From Candidatus Bathycorpusculum sp. (GTDB taxonomy: Archaea; Thermoproteota; Bathyarchaeia; Bathyarchaeales; Bathycorpusculaceae), in NCBI GenBank assembly GCA_009778385.1, contig WRJX01000098.1:1-51597 (forward strand): 51,597 nucleotides of DNA. Reading direction: 5' to 3'. The position numbers were made by a program, and so were the translations under genes. This document shows, one piece after another, positions 28,053-43,338 of this stretch. Each line of letters opens with the position of its first letter. Position 1 is the stretch's first letter. Under the pieces are notes generated by a model, which was given only the letters and a program-made list of their open reading frames with translations, had not been told where the DNA came from and made no database searches.

Positions 28053-31000
28053 ATGAAACAATTACTGGGTAAAATTAGCTTATTGGCCAAAAAACGCAGA
28101 ATAAGCCATTATATGATACATTACATGTCCGTATTACTTATCATTATGTTGATGGGAACAACAGTTTTTATTGTACATGGTGATATTAGCGTAAACGTTG
28201 AGCCCACAGAAGCCGAAGTTTACGACGTGATATACTACGTTTCAGCAAATGGAAACGATAACGCAAATGACGGTTTATCTGAAGAATACCCTTTTGCAAC
28301 ACTTGCCAAAACTGCCGATATAATAAATGGTAAGGGTATGGACGGCAATTATCTTATATTTGTTATGACTGATTTAACCTCAACATATTGTGCTCGTTAC
28401 TACGATAATAGTGTCACCATAACCAGCTTAGATGAGACACCCTGCACAGTTACGCGTGGCTCTGGGTTTGAGGGTTTATCCGATAATGCACGTAGCTGGT
28501 ACAACCCCGCTATGCTAGAAATTGGAAGCACAAACCTAACTGAGGACGCACCTAAAATCACCTTAACACTTAAAAACATCATTTTTGACGATGCCTATCT
28601 TCATGAAGGCACAATATTTAGATACGCACCAACCCCCTATAACCCAGCTGATCCAGGTTTAGACCATGTGCAAGATGCCATAGTTGCCTCATACGCAATA
28701 TCGGCAAGCATAATATTAGATCAAGGCGCCGAGTTACACAACTTTGGCGGTATGACCGCCATTCGCGCAGCAGATCATGCCACAGTAATACTAAAGGACG
28801 GCAGCCTAATTACCGACATCCGACCAAACGCCGAAACCAACAACAGAGCCGTTAGCCCAAGCCAAACTAATTGGGCGGCCAACGGAGAAGCCGCCATAAG
28901 CATTGCAAACTCTTATTTCTACATGTACTCAGGCGCAAAAATCACAAACATCGCAAACGTCCATGCCATAAAATTCACCGGAACGGTTGCATGTTTTATG
29001 GATGGTGAAATCGCCCATATGATAGGCAATAAAGGCATGGACACTGACCCTGACAACGGCGGAAGAGGAGTCAAAGGCGCAATATATTTTGATCAAAGCC
29101 CCACTATTGACCACATAAACCCAATGGCACATATTTCAGGTTCAGCCATAATCGGCCCAAACGCGTACATTCACGACAACGCCATAAAATGTGGTGCGAT
29201 ATGTGTTTCTCGTAACACAAACATTTCTGTGAAAATCTATGGCAAAATCAACAACAACGTAGGCGGAACAGGCTCAACATTAAATATAGCAGCAACCAAC
29301 GGAGGCGGTCTATATATTGTCAACGGCGGTACAGTGTATCTTGAAGACGGCTGTGAAATCATTGGTAACAGACTTACCGGTGCAGGAGGTTATGGTGGTG
29401 CAGCCAGTGTTCAGCAGAGTGGCTCAAGGTTGATTATGAATGGAGGCACCATTTCTGGAAACAGCGGATCAGCAACTAACTCCGGTATAACCGTAAATAA
29501 GGGTGATGCAAGTTTTGAGATGAATGGAGGCATCATTGAAAATGGTGATCAAGCTGTACATCTCTATGAAAGTGGCTCAGATGGCACCGCGGGCAAACTT
29601 ACACTAAACGCAGGTATCGTTTCGGGTGTAACGGTAGACCGTAGCATTCCCTTTGGGTATTCTCTTAATCGTCACCTTTTCATAAACCAAGATAACGTTA
29701 TTATTGAAACGGGATACGTCAGTGTTGCGGGCCGAAACGTATACCCAATAAGCGCAGATTTTAAAATCGGTAACCCAAACACGGCGATCTACACCTCGAT
29801 CAGATCAAATTTGCCCAAAGGCTGGTCTATGCCAACTACTGATAGTAATGTTGTTGGTTTCTGGATCGAAAAAGACGGCACAGCAAAATACTCGGTATTA
29901 AAACCCACTACAGGCACCGGTGGAACTAGCTATAACGCCGCACTTAACCTATATTTTGCCGCAGTCCAAGCAACAACCGCCACAGGCACAATAGACACCC
30001 GTATTCCACTCAAACTCTACCCCACAACAATTGAGAAAATAGGCAGTACTGATCATATTGTTGTATCTGTTCCTATTGATGCGTACCCAAATGGTGCTGT
30101 GGTAGTATTGGTTCAACCTACAACGTTATATGGCGAAATTAACTTTCAAGGACCAACAACAATAGTCTATGACATAAATGCTCAACAATACACTATCCCC
30201 TACACAGCTTCATACACTATGCCCACAGGCCTGCACACTGAGCTAATCGTAGATGGACATAGTAACACGAACACCGCTTTCAATTTTATCATATGTCCTG
30301 ACTCCCGCACAATCCCTGATATTTCAAATCTAACTTTTGATAGCGACCTTTTTGAGATATATGGCAGTCCTGTTTGGAATGCTCTCACCGGAGAGTTTGT
30401 TGTAACCCTTCTGTTAAAAGACGATTGGGATAACACGATAAACATGGAGTCAACTTTTAAATTTAACTGCATTATGGCTGCTGCGAATTTTGAGGAAGCT
30501 GACTTTCTAAGTCTTACAGGGCATCTTGGAATTGTTGGAAATGGAAAAACCTATTTTATCTATGGTAATGAAGCAAAAACCCTTATGGTTGTGCCTAAAG
30601 GCACGCTCTGTGTAAATAAAATACTTACTGGTGATGCGGTAGATGCAACAAGAGATTTTCACTTTACTATAACTTTTAGTAATGATGGTACTTATGATGA
30701 TGTTGCAAGTGGAAGTACAATCGCTTTAAAAGGTGGTAAGTCTAAACTTATTGAGGGTATACCTCAAGGAGTAACCTATGCTATAGTTGAGCTTGAAGCA
30801 AATCAGGACGGCTATACGACTACTTCAACGGGGGCACGTGGGGTTATCTCTGAAATGCCGTCTGAGGCGGTATTTGTTAATAGCAAAAATTATGATTTGT
30901 TTGAGTATGTTGTGACGGTTAGCGGTAGTTTTGCTGGTGCATCTTCTGGTGCGGGTAGTTATTATGAGGATGAAATTGTTACTATTCGTGCAGGTAGTCG

Positions 31001-32597
31001 TGATGGTTATGTTTTTGCCGGATGGACAATTAATTCTGGAGGTATTGTACTTGGGAACGCTATGAATGCTATAACAACTTTTGTTATGCCTGCTAATGAT
31101 GTTTCTGTTACAGCTACCTGGAAGCCTGTGGATCCAGTGGTAACTTCTTTTGTTGTGGTTTATAGCGGTAATGGTGCGTCTAGTGGTGGTGTTCCTGAAG
31201 ATAATAACATCTACAAAGCAGGTGATGCTGTTATGGTTGCAGCTAATCCGGGTGATCTTGTTAAGACTGGTTATGTGTTTCTTGGTTGGGCCTACAGTAA
31301 TGTCTCTACTGTTGCTAATTTTGTAGTAACTGGTAGTTCTGTTACTCCGGATAGATTTACTATTGCATCTAATGTTACTTTATATGCAGTGTGGTCTTTG
31401 GTTGAGGTGGGGCCATATCGTCTAATTTATGATGCTAATTGGCCAAACGGTGCTGCTGGATCTGGAACTGTACCGGTTGATAATCGTACTTATGTTTTCG
31501 GTGCTTCTGTTACTGTTCTGGCTAATCCTAACTCTCTTGCAAAATCTGGTTATGTGTTTCTTGGTTGGGCCTATAGTAATGCTTCTACTGTTGCTAATTT
31601 TGTAGTAACTGGTAATTCTGTTACTCCATCCAGTTTTACTATGGGTTCTTCTGATGTGACGCTATATGCGGTATGGTCTAATGATACTGATGTTTCTAAT
31701 CTATATTCTATAACTTACAGTTACGTCATACCGGTTCCTTATGGCGCTCCTTCTTTGCCTGCTTCTGAGTCTAATGTGGCTGCTGGCACGGTAAAATTTG
31801 TTGCTAATGTTCCAATGTTGGCTGGCTATGCTTTTGAAGGTTGGTCTGCAAATACTGTGATAATAGTGTATCCCAATGGTAGCTTTGTTATGCCTAGTCA
31901 AGATGTTGTTTTTACTGGTAGCTGGGTGGCAAAGTCATATACAGTGCATTATGATGTTAACGGTGCAGATTCGGGTGATGTAGCTTCTATGACTGGTGTT
32001 TTATGGAATGACTCTGGGCTGCTTTCTACTATAGTTCCGAAACGATCTGGCTATGCTTTTGAGGGTTGGTTCTTCAATGGAGTCAATGTTACTATTAGTC
32101 ATAGGTATTCTGATCTGGCGATGGATGATAATATTATGAGTATTACTTTGCAGGCACAATGGTCAGCAGTGTCCAGTGATGTTGTAGCGTGGGCGTTTGT
32201 GAATTTAGTGCTTAGTGTGGTAGGTATTGTGCTGGCGGTTATAGCGACTGTTTATGTATTGTTACAAAGAAAATCAAAGGCTGAGCATAAAGATGCTGAA
32301 GGTTCGTATGTATCTGAGTATAGCAAAAAGCACAGTGGTAAAGAAGATAAGCCACGTAGAAACGTGTGGTTGTTTATAGTGCTTGCCCTGAGTATTGTGG
32401 GTGTCGTTGTATTTTTGCTTACTGAGGATATGAGTCTTCAGATGAAATTGATAGACAAGTGGTCGATTGTTAATGCTGCCATATTCCTAGCGGGAATCAT
32501 AGGCATTATGTTTGCGTTTAAGCACAAAAAAGACTCCACTGATGAAAAGAAGCCGCGATTTGCTTTCCCTGATGGCTCTAAAACCGACCTGCTTTAA
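28053..32597 (+). CDS. Giant surface protein, beta-helix plus InlB-type repeats
   Basis: 1514 residues. A basic N-terminus and membrane segment (about 21-44) export it. Residues about 60-600 are beta-helix-like with GG-rich rungs (IIMNGGTISGNSG-type turns). A domain at about 855-945 (GDAVDATRDFHFTITFSNDG) resembles DUF5979-type modules. Then come about four or five InlB B/Listeria-Bacteroides repeats (about 950-1370), each ending in GY-x-F-x-GW-x(n)-LYAVW-like strands. Three membrane segments lie near 1377-1400, 1437-1457 and 1472-1490, separated by Lys-rich linkers. Such repeats are frequent in gut-associated adhesins. It probably binds host, plant or microbial surfaces. Confidence 0.85.
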   Translation: MKQLLGKISLLAKKRRISHYMIHYMSVLLIIMLMGTTVFIVHGDISVNVEPTEAEVYDVIYYVSANGNDNANDGLSEEYPFATLAKTADIINGKGMDGNYLIFVMTDLTSTYCARYYDNSVTITSLDETPCTVTRGSGFEGLSDNARSWYNPAMLEIGSTNLTEDAPKITLTLKNIIFDDAYLHEGTIFRYAPTPYNPADPGLDHVQDAIVASYAISASIILDQGAELHNFGGMTAIRAADHATVILKDGSLITDIRPNAETNNRAVSPSQTNWAANGEAAISIANSYFYMYSGAKITNIANVHAIKFTGTVACFMDGEIAHMIGNKGMDTDPDNGGRGVKGAIYFDQSPTIDHINPMAHISGSAIIGPNAYIHDNAIKCGAICVSRNTNISVKIYGKINNNVGGTGSTLNIAATNGGGLYIVNGGTVYLEDGCEIIGNRLTGAGGYGGAASVQQSGSRLIMNGGTISGNSGSATNSGITVNKGDASFEMNGGIIENGDQAVHLYESGSDGTAGKLTLNAGIVSGVTVDRSIPFGYSLNRHLFINQDNVIIETGYVSVAGRNVYPISADFKIGNPNTAIYTSIRSNLPKGWSMPTTDSNVVGFWIEKDGTAKYSVLKPTTGTGGTSYNAALNLYFAAVQATTATGTIDTRIPLKLYPTTIEKIGSTDHIVVSVPIDAYPNGAVVVLVQPTTLYGEINFQGPTTIVYDINAQQYTIPYTASYTMPTGLHTELIVDGHSNTNTAFNFIICPDSRTIPDISNLTFDSDLFEIYGSPVWNALTGEFVVTLLLKDDWDNTINMESTFKFNCIMAAANFEEADFLSLTGHLGIVGNGKTYFIYGNEAKTLMVVPKGTLCVNKILTGDAVDATRDFHFTITFSNDGTYDDVASGSTIALKGGKSKLIEGIPQGVTYAIVELEANQDGYTTTSTGARGVISEMPSEAVFVNSKNYDLFEYVVTVSGSFAGASSGAGSYYEDEIVTIRAGSRDGYVFAGWTINSGGIVLGNAMNAITTFVMPANDVSVTATWKPVDPVVTSFVVVYSGNGASSGGVPEDNNIYKAGDAVMVAANPGDLVKTGYVFLGWAYSNVSTVANFVVTGSSVTPDRFTIASNVTLYAVWSLVEVGPYRLIYDANWPNGAAGSGTVPVDNRTYVFGASVTVLANPNSLAKSGYVFLGWAYSNASTVANFVVTGNSVTPSSFTMGSSDVTLYAVWSNDTDVSNLYSITYSYVIPVPYGAPSLPASESNVAAGTVKFVANVPMLAGYAFEGWSANTVIIVYPNGSFVMPSQDVVFTGSWVAKSYTVHYDVNGADSGDVASMTGVLWNDSGLLSTIVPKRSGYAFEGWFFNGVNVTISHRYSDLAMDDNIMSITLQAQWSAVSSDVVAWAFVNLVLSVVGIVLAVIATVYVLLQRKSKAEHKDAEGSYVSEYSKKHSGKEDKPRRNVWLFIVLALSIVGVVVFLLTEDMSLQMKLIDKWSIVNAAIFLAGIIGIMFAFKHKKDSTDEKKPRFAFPDGSKTDLL
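31267..31627 (+). repeat. Near-identical InlB-repeat segments, 279-base period
   Basis: The 82 bases at 31267-31348 recur at 31546-31627 with four mismatches, an offset of 279 bases (93 codons). Both encode the GYVFLGWAYSN-STVANFVVTG core of adjacent surface-protein repeats. Identity at the DNA level, including silent sites, points to recent duplication or gene conversion. Confidence 0.85.
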
Positions 32598-32617
32598 AGG
32601 GCAGACACCCTTTTTTT
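32596..32617 (+). terminator. Hairpin terminator of the giant surface gene
   Basis: AAAGGG (32596-32601), a six-base loop and CCCTTT (32608-32613) form a perfect hairpin that runs into seven T. It starts at the stop codon. The form is that of a bacterial intrinsic terminator, unusual among the plain T-tract terminators in the rest of the window. Confidence 0.65.
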
Positions 32618-33137
32618 GTCTTATTATACCCATTTGTTTAGGTTCTACAATGGTATGGGAAAGTTAAACATCAATAATGTTTGTTGGTTTCCAATCTCCC
32701 TTGTGTGAGTAGTGAAAGTGCCTAAAACTTCCAGCTTGAAACAACTAAGGAATTGTGAACCTTGCTAGTTATCATAGCGTTCAAGTGATCTGTCTGAGAT
32801 CTGTGGGCACGAAATGAAAACAGAACTGCCAACTCCCTGTACCAGCATATTGGGTTAACTGGGAAATAGTTAAAGGAAAATCCTGTAAGTTCTCCCATGC
32901 GGGCAGAGTGCTCTAGACGTCTATGTGAAAGTATAACAGTAATATGTGTATTATTTGGTGTGATTTAATAGCCTGATAGTGGTTTCTAAAAAAAGATGCC
33001 GATTTAAGTCTAAAACTGTGGATTGCATTAACTTGAACAAACCTTTTGCAATTATAAAAAATTGGCGTATTTATTATGAGTAAAAACTCATAATTTGTTA
33101 GCCGTTTGTTGTTGTTTTGTGTAGTCTATTATAATTT
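32618..33137. other. Long non-coding region around the structured RNA
   Basis: 520 bases between the surface-gene terminator and the rubrerythrin stop. Its left half holds the structured element listed at 32657-32940. To its right (32941-33137) the sequence is AT-rich and shows nothing I can support as a gene; no group II intron domain V hairpin was found there. Confidence 0.5.
32657..32940 (+). ncRNA. Strongly structured RNA element, possible group II intron remnant
   Basis: Nested stems seen by eye: 32658-32662 with 32688-32692, enclosing a 6-bp hairpin 32666-32671/32677-32682; 32718-32723 with 32805-32810, enclosing 32735-32740/32780-32785, a hairpin 32743-32750/32760-32770 and 32787-32791/32797-32801; then 32826-32830 with 32902-32906, enclosing 32831-32837/32861-32871. 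The order GUGAAAGUGCC ... GGGCACGAAAUGAAAACAG ... GGGUUAACUGGG resembles the end of domain I through domain III of bacterial-type group II introns, and GUGUG at 32703 resembles an intron 5' end. No reverse transcriptase or domain V follows. If not intron, it is an unknown structured RNA. Confidence 0.4.
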
Positions 33138-33710
33138 TTAGTAGTTTTCTGTCCAGACTTCAAAGTATGCTTTCGCGTGAGCACAAACTGGGCATTTATC
33201 TGGCGCTTCTGGTCCTTCAAGAACATGTCCGCAGTTTCTGCATTTCCACTTAATCTCTGTATCCTTTTTGAACACTTTACCGTTTGCAACGTTTTCCAGT
33301 AGCTTATTGTAACGGCGTTCATGGTAAGCTTCTACTTTAGCAACCATTCTAAACGTAGTAGCTATGTCTTTGAAGCCTTCCTTCTCGGCGGTATCACCAA
33401 AACTTGGATAAAGGCTACCCCATTCAAGTTTTTCGCCTTCAGCTGCAGCTTTCAAGTTCTCAGCTGTTGTGCCAATTACACCGGCTGGATAGGCTGATGT
33501 GATTTCAACCATCCCGCCTTTAAGGTGTTTAAAGAAGAGTTCTGCGTGCTCTTTCTCATTAGCGGATGTTTCTTCAAAAATGGCTGCAATTTGTTCATAA
33601 CCTTCCTTTTTTGCTGCACTTGCAAAGAATGTGTATCTTGTTCTTGCTTGAGATTCACCTGCAAAAGCTGCTAGCAGGTTCTTTTCTGTTTGACTTCCTT
33701 TAAAATCCAT
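33138..33710 (-). CDS. Rubrerythrin
   Basis: Peroxide-reducing diiron protein of anaerobes. 190 residues: a four-helix ferritin-like domain with the diiron ligands in AFAGESQARTRY, EETSANEKEHAELF and the VEAYHERRY segments, followed by a C-terminal rubredoxin domain with two CxxC pairs (CRNCGHVLEG and CPVCAHAKAYF). ATG 33710 is chosen over TTG 33725 because GGAG then sits about ten bases upstream. Takes electrons from rubredoxin or a reductase to turn H2O2 into water. Fits a strict anaerobe meeting oxygen leaks. Confidence 0.95.
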   Translation of the reverse strand: MDFKGSQTEKNLLAAFAGESQARTRYTFFASAAKKEGYEQIAAIFEETSANEKEHAELFFKHLKGGMVEITSAYPAGVIGTTAENLKAAAEGEKLEWGSLYPSFGDTAEKEGFKDIATTFRMVAKVEAYHERRYNKLLENVANGKVFKKDTEIKWKCRNCGHVLEGPEAPDKCPVCAHAKAYFEVWTENY

Positions 33711-42345: not shown

Positions 42346-43338
42346 ATGATTGACTATTTCATTTTAATCTTTAGAATACTTATTTTCCCGGGGTTTACGT
42401 TTATTTTAGCGTTAACTCTGTTCTGTGACTGGATAGAACGAAAAATAGAGGCCCGTATCCAAAACAGAGTTGGTCCATTGGTCGCTGGGCCGGGAGGTAT
42501 TCTGCAGCCTTTGGCTGATTTTATAAAATTGTTAACCAAAGAAGACATTGAACCAACTAGTGTAAAGCGTTTTGTTTTCAAGTTTTCACCTTTGGCAGCT
42601 TTTGCAATGATGATTTTTGCTTTCTGCTTTATTCCTATTGATGGTGCTAGTGTTCTATCAACAACTGGGTTTACTGGCGACTTACTTATCATATTAACTT
42701 TTGCGACAATAGCAAACTTTATTTTGTTTCTTGCGGGGTGGGCATCAAATAACCCCTACGGGATAATTGGTTCAACAAGAGTTTTAACCCAATTTTTAGG
42801 TTATGATATTCCTCTGTACATACTTGCTCTTTCACCGGCGTTTCTAGCGGGAACTCTAAGTATATTTGGTATAGTTCAAAGCCAAACTCTGCCCTATTTC
42901 CTTTTAGTTCCCTGGGCGTTTGTATTGTTTATAATAGTAATGCAGGCAGAACTTGAAAAAGATCCTTTCGATGTGCCTCACTCTGAATCTGAAGTAGTCG
43001 GTGGTTTAGAAACCGAATATACCGGTGCGAAACTTGCCTTTATACACTTAACGCGTGATGTGCAGGTAGTTTTCGGTGCTGCCTTAGTTGTTACTTTGTT
43101 TCTTGGTGGGCCAAACGGGCCAGTTTTCTTTGGGTTGCCCACGTTTTGGCATGCTTTATGGTTCACCCTTAAGGTAATATTAGTAGTAATAATAAGTGAA
43201 TACTTGACAACTATATTTGCAAGGTTACGTATTGACCAAGTGCTTAATCTTAACTGGAAAATAATGCTACCTGGCGCAATACTTTCGCTACTTGCGACTT
43301 TAGCGGTAATAAATTGGGTAATTCCCTTGGTGATGTAA
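42346..43338 (+). CDS. H-like membrane subunit of the hydrogenase (NuoH/FpoH)
   Basis: 330 residues, about eight membrane helices. It links the redox arm to the membrane arm. Conserved loops are present: DWIERKIEARIQNRVGPL near 27-44, the GGILQPLADFIKLLTKED quinone-site-like stretch, and the acidic ELEKDPFDVPHSESEVVGG loop near 203-220, then TEYTGAKLAF. In hydrogenases there is no quinone, yet the loops remain. ATG 42346, abutting the I gene (TAA ATG). Confidence 0.94.
   Translation: MIDYFILIFRILIFPGFTFILALTLFCDWIERKIEARIQNRVGPLVAGPGGILQPLADFIKLLTKEDIEPTSVKRFVFKFSPLAAFAMMIFAFCFIPIDGASVLSTTGFTGDLLIILTFATIANFILFLAGWASNNPYGIIGSTRVLTQFLGYDIPLYILALSPAFLAGTLSIFGIVQSQTLPYFLLVPWAFVLFIIVMQAELEKDPFDVPHSESEVVGGLETEYTGAKLAFIHLTRDVQVVFGAALVVTLFLGGPNGPVFFGLPTFWHALWFTLKVILVVIISEYLTTIFARLRIDQVLNLNWKIMLPGAILSLLATLAVINWVIPLVM

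What the first reader, a model, noticed from the sequence alone, without database searches (positions are those of the whole stretch)
32657..32940. Dense nested stems in a non-coding gap: intron relic or new RNA
Seen: at least eight stems of 5-8 bp, several perfect, nested without conflict over 280 bases between two unrelated genes. The series GUGAAAGUGCC ... GGGCACGAAAUGAAAACAG ... GUUAACUGGG resembles the domain I end-domain III region of group II introns. No reverse transcriptase, domain V or complete domain I was found. So either a truncated intron or an undescribed structured RNA.
Basis: partly seen in the sequence, partly recalled or inferred. Interest (0 to 1): 0.65.

Follow-up and report, generated by a model that had tools for sequence, protein, structure and literature searches.

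The report
Decayed group II intron fragment
This stretch is a broken, decaying 228-base piece of a self-splicing mobile intron (group II, of the Lactococcus Ll.LtrB type) in a termite-gut archaeon; fuller copies survive in sister genomes, so the piece itself is an ordinary fossil, though I found no earlier report of such introns in this archaeal lineage.

Summary
Window 32686-32913 (+) is homologous to nt ~203-437 of a ~0.7-kb ORF-less group IIA intron: the 3' half of domain I (with the EBS1 hairpin) and the helices up to the edge of domain III. Three sister genomes (genus Ca. Bathycorpusculum, Bathyarchaeia) carry copies running from the GUGCG 5' end into domains V/VI. RT-bearing relatives encode a protein closest to Lactococcus LtrA. 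A covariance model built without the window finds it at 117 bits (E 3e-34); a profile from RT-type introns plus Ll.LtrB alone gives 6e-17. The helices show compensatory changes in the nine other copies. The window copy is dead: about 200 nt of domain I and domains III-VI are missing, about 12 of 49 helix pairs are broken, its branch is 4-7 times longer than those of its sisters, and its genome has no reverse transcriptase, no domain V and no other piece. 'Dense stems' alone were not evidence: folding energy equals that of shuffled sequence (z 0.2 and 0.0). The feature itself is ordinary. The mildly new point is the setting: LtrA-type introns, with compact ORF-less copies, in Bathyarchaeia.

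The parts
32686..32913 (+). Relic of an ORF-less group IIA (Ll.LtrB-like) intron: 3' half of domain I, domain II region, first bases of domain III (intron nt ~203-437 of ~700)
   Evidence: CM built without the window: 117.4 bits, E 3e-34. nhmmer profile of ORF-less copies: 1e-38 for 32677-32913; profile of RT-type introns plus Ll.LtrB only: 5.7e-17. blastn 72-75% to three sister genomes.
32710..32733 (+). Domain I hairpin (AGAGG...CCUCU in Ll.LtrB, CGAAGG...CCUUCG in relatives), largely broken in the window copy
   Evidence: Helix 3 has compensatory changes among the nine other copies; three pairs are non-standard in the window.
32734..32786 (+). Domain I stem GCUUGAA/UUCAAGU, retained through compensatory changes, enclosing the EBS1 hairpin
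   Evidence: Helix 4: 6 of 7 pairs with double changes; window keeps 6 of 7 in alignment A1.
32744..32769 (+). Position of the EBS1 hairpin (ACUAAGG...CCUUGCUAGU); EBS1 would lie at about UUGUGAA
   Evidence: At the same loop position EBS1 pairs 6/6 with the 5' exon in G027C37, G019C24 and G027C42, and 5/6 in three others. In the window the 5' exon junction is lost, so untestable.
32790..32806 (+). Domain I hairpin (CUGUAGG-AGAA-CCUAUGG in relatives); two of seven pairs broken here
   Evidence: Helix 6.
32859..32906 (+). Outer helices at the domain I/II junction (CUGGG...; UAAAGGA...UCUCC), partly decayed
   Evidence: Helices 7-9. Shares with the ORF-less copies a ~24-nt deletion relative to RT-type copies.

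Best explanation
The feature is a dead internal fragment of a group IIA mobile intron of the Ll.LtrB (mitochondrial-like, LtrA) kind, from a compact ORF-less subfamily of about 0.7 kb. A complete copy would fold into six domains, pick its target by EBS1-IBS1 pairing and splice with its domain V. It would be moved in trans by an LtrA-like reverse transcriptase/maturase encoded by sister introns (inferred; such RTs exist in two of the three genomes with fuller copies). In the window genome a copy inserted, or was inherited, in the gap between two unrelated genes, lost its first ~200 nt and everything from domain III on, and is now drifting. It cannot splice or move because it lacks the 5' splice site, most of domains III and IV, catalytic domain V and branch-point domain VI. 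Shown: homology, extent, missing domains, broken pairs, absence of RT and domain V in the assembly. Inferred: trans-mobilisation of the parent, order of deletions, lack of any present function.
For: Homologs at 72-75% in G027, G019 and G020. They begin with GUGCGCCCAGAUAGGG, the 5' end also found in Ll.LtrB, and continue into a domain V/VI-like 3' part; RF00029 is above gathering for G027C37 (49.5 bits) and at 39.8 of 40 for G019C24. Profile and CM hits made without the window. Covariation: 25 of 49 pairs with double changes, 0 of 500 shuffles as high, slid controls collapse. EBS1-IBS1 complementarity 6/6 in three divergent copies at one loop position. Relatives' RT matches LtrA (PDB 5g2x, E 7e-227). 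Decay: window branch 0.40 against 0.055-0.09 for its sisters, in a 100/100 clade with them; 13 of 80 columns invariant in all other copies are changed; CM score 117 against 201-277 for eight of the fuller copies. No RT, GIIM or RF00029 match in the window genome and only one intron piece.
Against: No gathering-level Rfam match to the window segment and none to a group II model even at E <= 5, though that is expected when domain V is missing. The assembly is a 105-contig MAG (97.7% complete), so missing parts could in principle lie in gaps. Several unpaired motifs (UAACUGGG, ACGAAA) are still well kept.
Confidence: 0.95

Rival explanations
1. Exapted intron fragment: the piece has been kept as a host small RNA or as a 3'-UTR element of the surface-protein gene.
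For: The stem enclosing EBS1 is kept through compensatory changes and several unpaired motifs are well conserved.
Against: Found as such in a single genome, with no model match downstream of rubrerythrin in sister species. About 12 of 49 pairs broken, fast branch, folding energy as in shuffles. The upstream gene appears to have its own terminator-like repeat at about 32597-32620 (by eye).
Confidence: 0.03
2. Living trans-splicing (fragmented) group II intron, the other pieces being elsewhere in the genome.
For: Group II introns split into two or three pieces are known in organelles (general knowledge).
Against: No RF00029 match and no other match to the full intron in the own genome. Flanks on both sides show no intron homology, and core pairs are broken.
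Confidence: 0.01
3. Undescribed structured RNA family unrelated to introns.
For: No relevant Rfam match.
Against: Collinear homology to introns that end in an RF00029 domain V/VI and to Ll.LtrB.
Confidence: 0.005

Closest known systems
Ll.LtrB group II intron of Lactococcus (copy on pAH82, NC_004966.1; class IIA, LtrA/ML lineage)
   Same: Same 5' end GUGCGCCCAGAUAGGG as the fuller relatives, same helix order and motifs in the window segment; 57% identity to the window, 59-61% to the three ORF-less copies over it
   Different: The window copy is a fragment without most of domains III-VI and without ORF; it shares a deletion in the domain II region with the ORF-less copies
ORF-less ~0.7-kb group IIA introns of Ca. 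Bathycorpusculum (G027:C37, G019:C24, G020:C10)
   Same: 72-75% identity by blastn, same deletion, one clade with 100/100 support
   Different: They run from the 5' end into domain V/VI; the window copy is truncated on both sides and evolves faster
Rfam RF00029 Intron_gpII (domains V-VI)
   Same: Matches relatives of the element
   Different: Absent from the window and from its genome

Membership tests
Group II intron (class IIA / Ll.LtrB type), as a relic | Homology of the RNA to group IIA introns over the segment present | tested here: met
   CM 117.4 bits, E 3e-34; profile of RT-type introns plus Ll.LtrB 5.7e-17
Group II intron (class IIA / Ll.LtrB type), as a relic | Conserved domain I helices with compensatory changes | tested here: met
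   25 of 49 pairs with double changes in the nine other copies; window keeps about three quarters of the pairs
Functional group II intron | 5' end GUGYG and complete domain I | tested here: not met
   Nothing homologous upstream of 32686: alignment score 21.0 against 20.8 for shuffles
Functional group II intron | Domain V with catalytic triad and 2-nt bulge; domain VI with branch A | tested here: not met
   No RF00029 match in window or own genome; no homology downstream of 32913
Functional group II intron | Intron-encoded RT/maturase, in cis or in trans in the genome | tested here: not met
   No RVT_1 or GIIM match in G000
Functional group II intron | EBS1-IBS1 pairing with the 5' exon | not testable with these tools
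   5' exon junction lost in the window; met 6/6 in three other copies
RNase P RNA / SRP RNA | Match to the Rfam models | tested here: not met
   No match in the segment at gathering, and none in 32500-33150 at E <= 5

The most novel reading that the evidence does not exclude
Ca. Bathycorpusculum carries a hitherto unreported expansion of LtrA-lineage group IIA introns in archaea, including compact ORF-less copies moved in trans; the window fragment is one of its fossils.
Probability: 0.55. Interest if true: 0.4.

Novelty: new member of a known kind. Interest (0 to 1): 0.22.

Why it matters
As a feature it is an ordinary mobile-element fossil. It led to group II introns with an LtrA-type maturase in termite-gut Bathyarchaeia, with up to 12 domain V matches in one genome. 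A 2022 survey of archaeal genomes found group II introns concentrated in Halobacterota, also in Thermoplasmatota and absent from most other phyla, at most 10 per genome, with archaeal RTs in the classes bacterial-C, bacterial-D, CL1A and CL1B (PMC8919778). It also shows that Rfam misses relics that lack domain V.

Tried and rejected
Rfam on the window at gathering and on 32500-33150 at E <= 5: nothing relevant, only chance matches to VIS1, ar15 and BTE. Single-sequence folding: no signal. Plasmid collection with the window segment: no match; the sister copy G020:C10 was needed to reach Lactococcus. Extension of homology into both flanks: at shuffle level. A second CM match at 43042-43212 (-), 10.9 bits, E 0.059: taken as chance. 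Empty-site comparison through the rubrerythrin gene: orthologs exist in many sister genomes but nucleotide homology stops at the end of the gene, so no empty site can be read. RNase P, SRP and transposon-associated guide RNA ideas were dropped once the intron homology was found.

Full report
The locus. The window is contig C98 of a 2.18-Mb, 105-contig genome (97.7% complete). Named public records show which genus it belongs to: contig C90 of sister genome G027 corresponds to WQYG01000090.1 (same length, 7754, and same RT) of Candidatus Bathycorpusculum sp. Emb289P3bin80, and contig C73 of G003 to WQVG01000073.1 (same length, 9584) of Ca. Bathycorpusculum acetigenerans; both genomes are listed as 'same genus' as the window. 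The feature lies between the end of an InlB-repeat surface-protein gene (to 32597) and the 3' end of a rubrerythrin gene (33138).

The observation. Rfam finds nothing there at gathering and only chance matches at E <= 5.

Homologs. A DNA search of 101 genomes found the same segment at 72-75% identity in three sister genomes: G027:C37, G019:C24 and G020:C10. In all three the homologous region is part of a longer element that starts GUGCGCCCAGAUAGGG and ends with a domain V/VI-like 3' part. Rfam RF00029 recognises that part at 49.5 bits in G027C37 and 39.8 (cut-off 40) in G019C24; G020C10 gives no match. By eye, domain V of G027C37 carries the AGC triad; G019C24 and G020C10 read AGU there, and a lower-stem pair looks broken in G020C10, so those two may also be decaying (sequences, my reading). 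No reading frame of RT size lies in them, so they are ORF-less introns of about 0.7 kb. G019:C24 carries genes of archaeal type beside the intron (SRP54-like, ribosomal L21e-like and aIF5A-like proteins; my reading), which argues against bacterial contamination.

More distant copies in G003, G020, G001 and G027 have the same 5' end, most followed by the start of an LtrA-like RT; G027:C42 is a second ORF-less form with its own domain V. The RT of G027:C90 has RVT_1, maturase and HNH domains, and its best solved-structure match is LtrA (5g2x, E 7e-227). Among public genomes its closest relatives are another Ca. Bathycorpusculum and Bacillota, mainly Clostridia. In a tree most of the genus's RTs group together (94/99, just below the tool's threshold) apart from Lactococcus and Clostridia; two rows (L027, L029) are divergent and of unsure place.

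Is the window segment really this? A profile made only from the other introns and Ll.LtrB of pAH82, without the three close ORF-less copies, hits 32686-32881 with E 5.7e-17; a profile of those ORF-less copies hits 32677-32913 with 1e-38. A covariance model from nine other copies without the window hits exactly 32686-32913, 117.4 bits, E 3e-34, and this is its only match in the window genome. The structure used has 25 of 49 pairs with changes on both sides in these nine sequences, more than any of 500 shuffles, and collapses when slid by one column. The loop of helix 5 holds EBS1: at the same loop position, six bases pair 6/6 with the last six bases of the 5' exon in G027C37 (CTAAAC/GTTTGG), G019C24 (CTGAAT/ATTCAG) and G027C42 (GTTAAG/CTTAAC), and 5/6 in three more. 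That is functional covariation independent of the alignment.

What is missing and how decayed it is. The flanks show no residual homology: upstream score 21.0 against 20.8 +/- 3.0 in shuffles; downstream 36 against 32.7 +/- 4.6. So intron nt 1-202 and everything after about nt 437 are gone, including most of domain III, domain IV, domain V and domain VI. The window shares with the ORF-less copies a ~24-nt deletion in the domain II region and forms one clade with them (100/100). Its end branch is 0.40 against 0.055-0.09 for them. It changes 13 of 80 columns that are invariant in all others. About 12 of 49 helix pairs are non-standard (my count from the NC line), against 7.7% unpaired cells in the nine other copies. 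One stem is kept by double changes (GCUUGAA/UUCAAGU), which fits a period of function before decay. The genome has no RVT_1, GIIM or RF00029 match.

Conclusion. Novelty lies only in the setting. A 2022 survey reported group II introns in few archaeal phyla, at most 10 per genome, and archaeal RTs in four classes that do not include the LtrA/ML lineage (PMC8919778). A full-text search for group II introns with Bathyarchaeota gave one paper, with a single mention of such introns. Here 10 of 32 genomes of the genus have domain V matches above cut-off, with 12 matches at E <= 0.001 in G026. The literature library is incomplete, so 'unreported' is tentative.

Noticed in passing
window 32930-32990: A 61-bp stretch 80% identical to sister genome G031:C56 at the tail of a DUF433-domain reading frame, with a weak second copy at G031:C70; looks like a remnant of another gene or element next to the intron relic.
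   Followed up: partly
G026 (several contigs): Twelve matches to Rfam Intron_gpII at E <= 0.001 in one Bathyarchaeia genome, eight of them above the gathering score; some lie at contig ends, so they may be multi-copy introns that broke the assembly.
   Followed up: no
L049 (G027:C42), minus strand, just downstream of the intron: Right after the 3' end of this ORF-less intron the sequence reads GTGTGCCCAGAAAATCTGACTC, like a second intron 5' end in tandem.
   Followed up: no
L027 (G001:C110) and L029 (G020:C61): Divergent group II RTs (34-38% to the LtrA-like one), so at least one further intron lineage exists in the genus.
   Followed up: partly
window 28053-32597 (+): Very large surface protein (1514 aa) with InlB B-repeat and Listeria-Bacteroides repeat domains, a type often seen in gut bacteria, here in an archaeon.
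   Followed up: no
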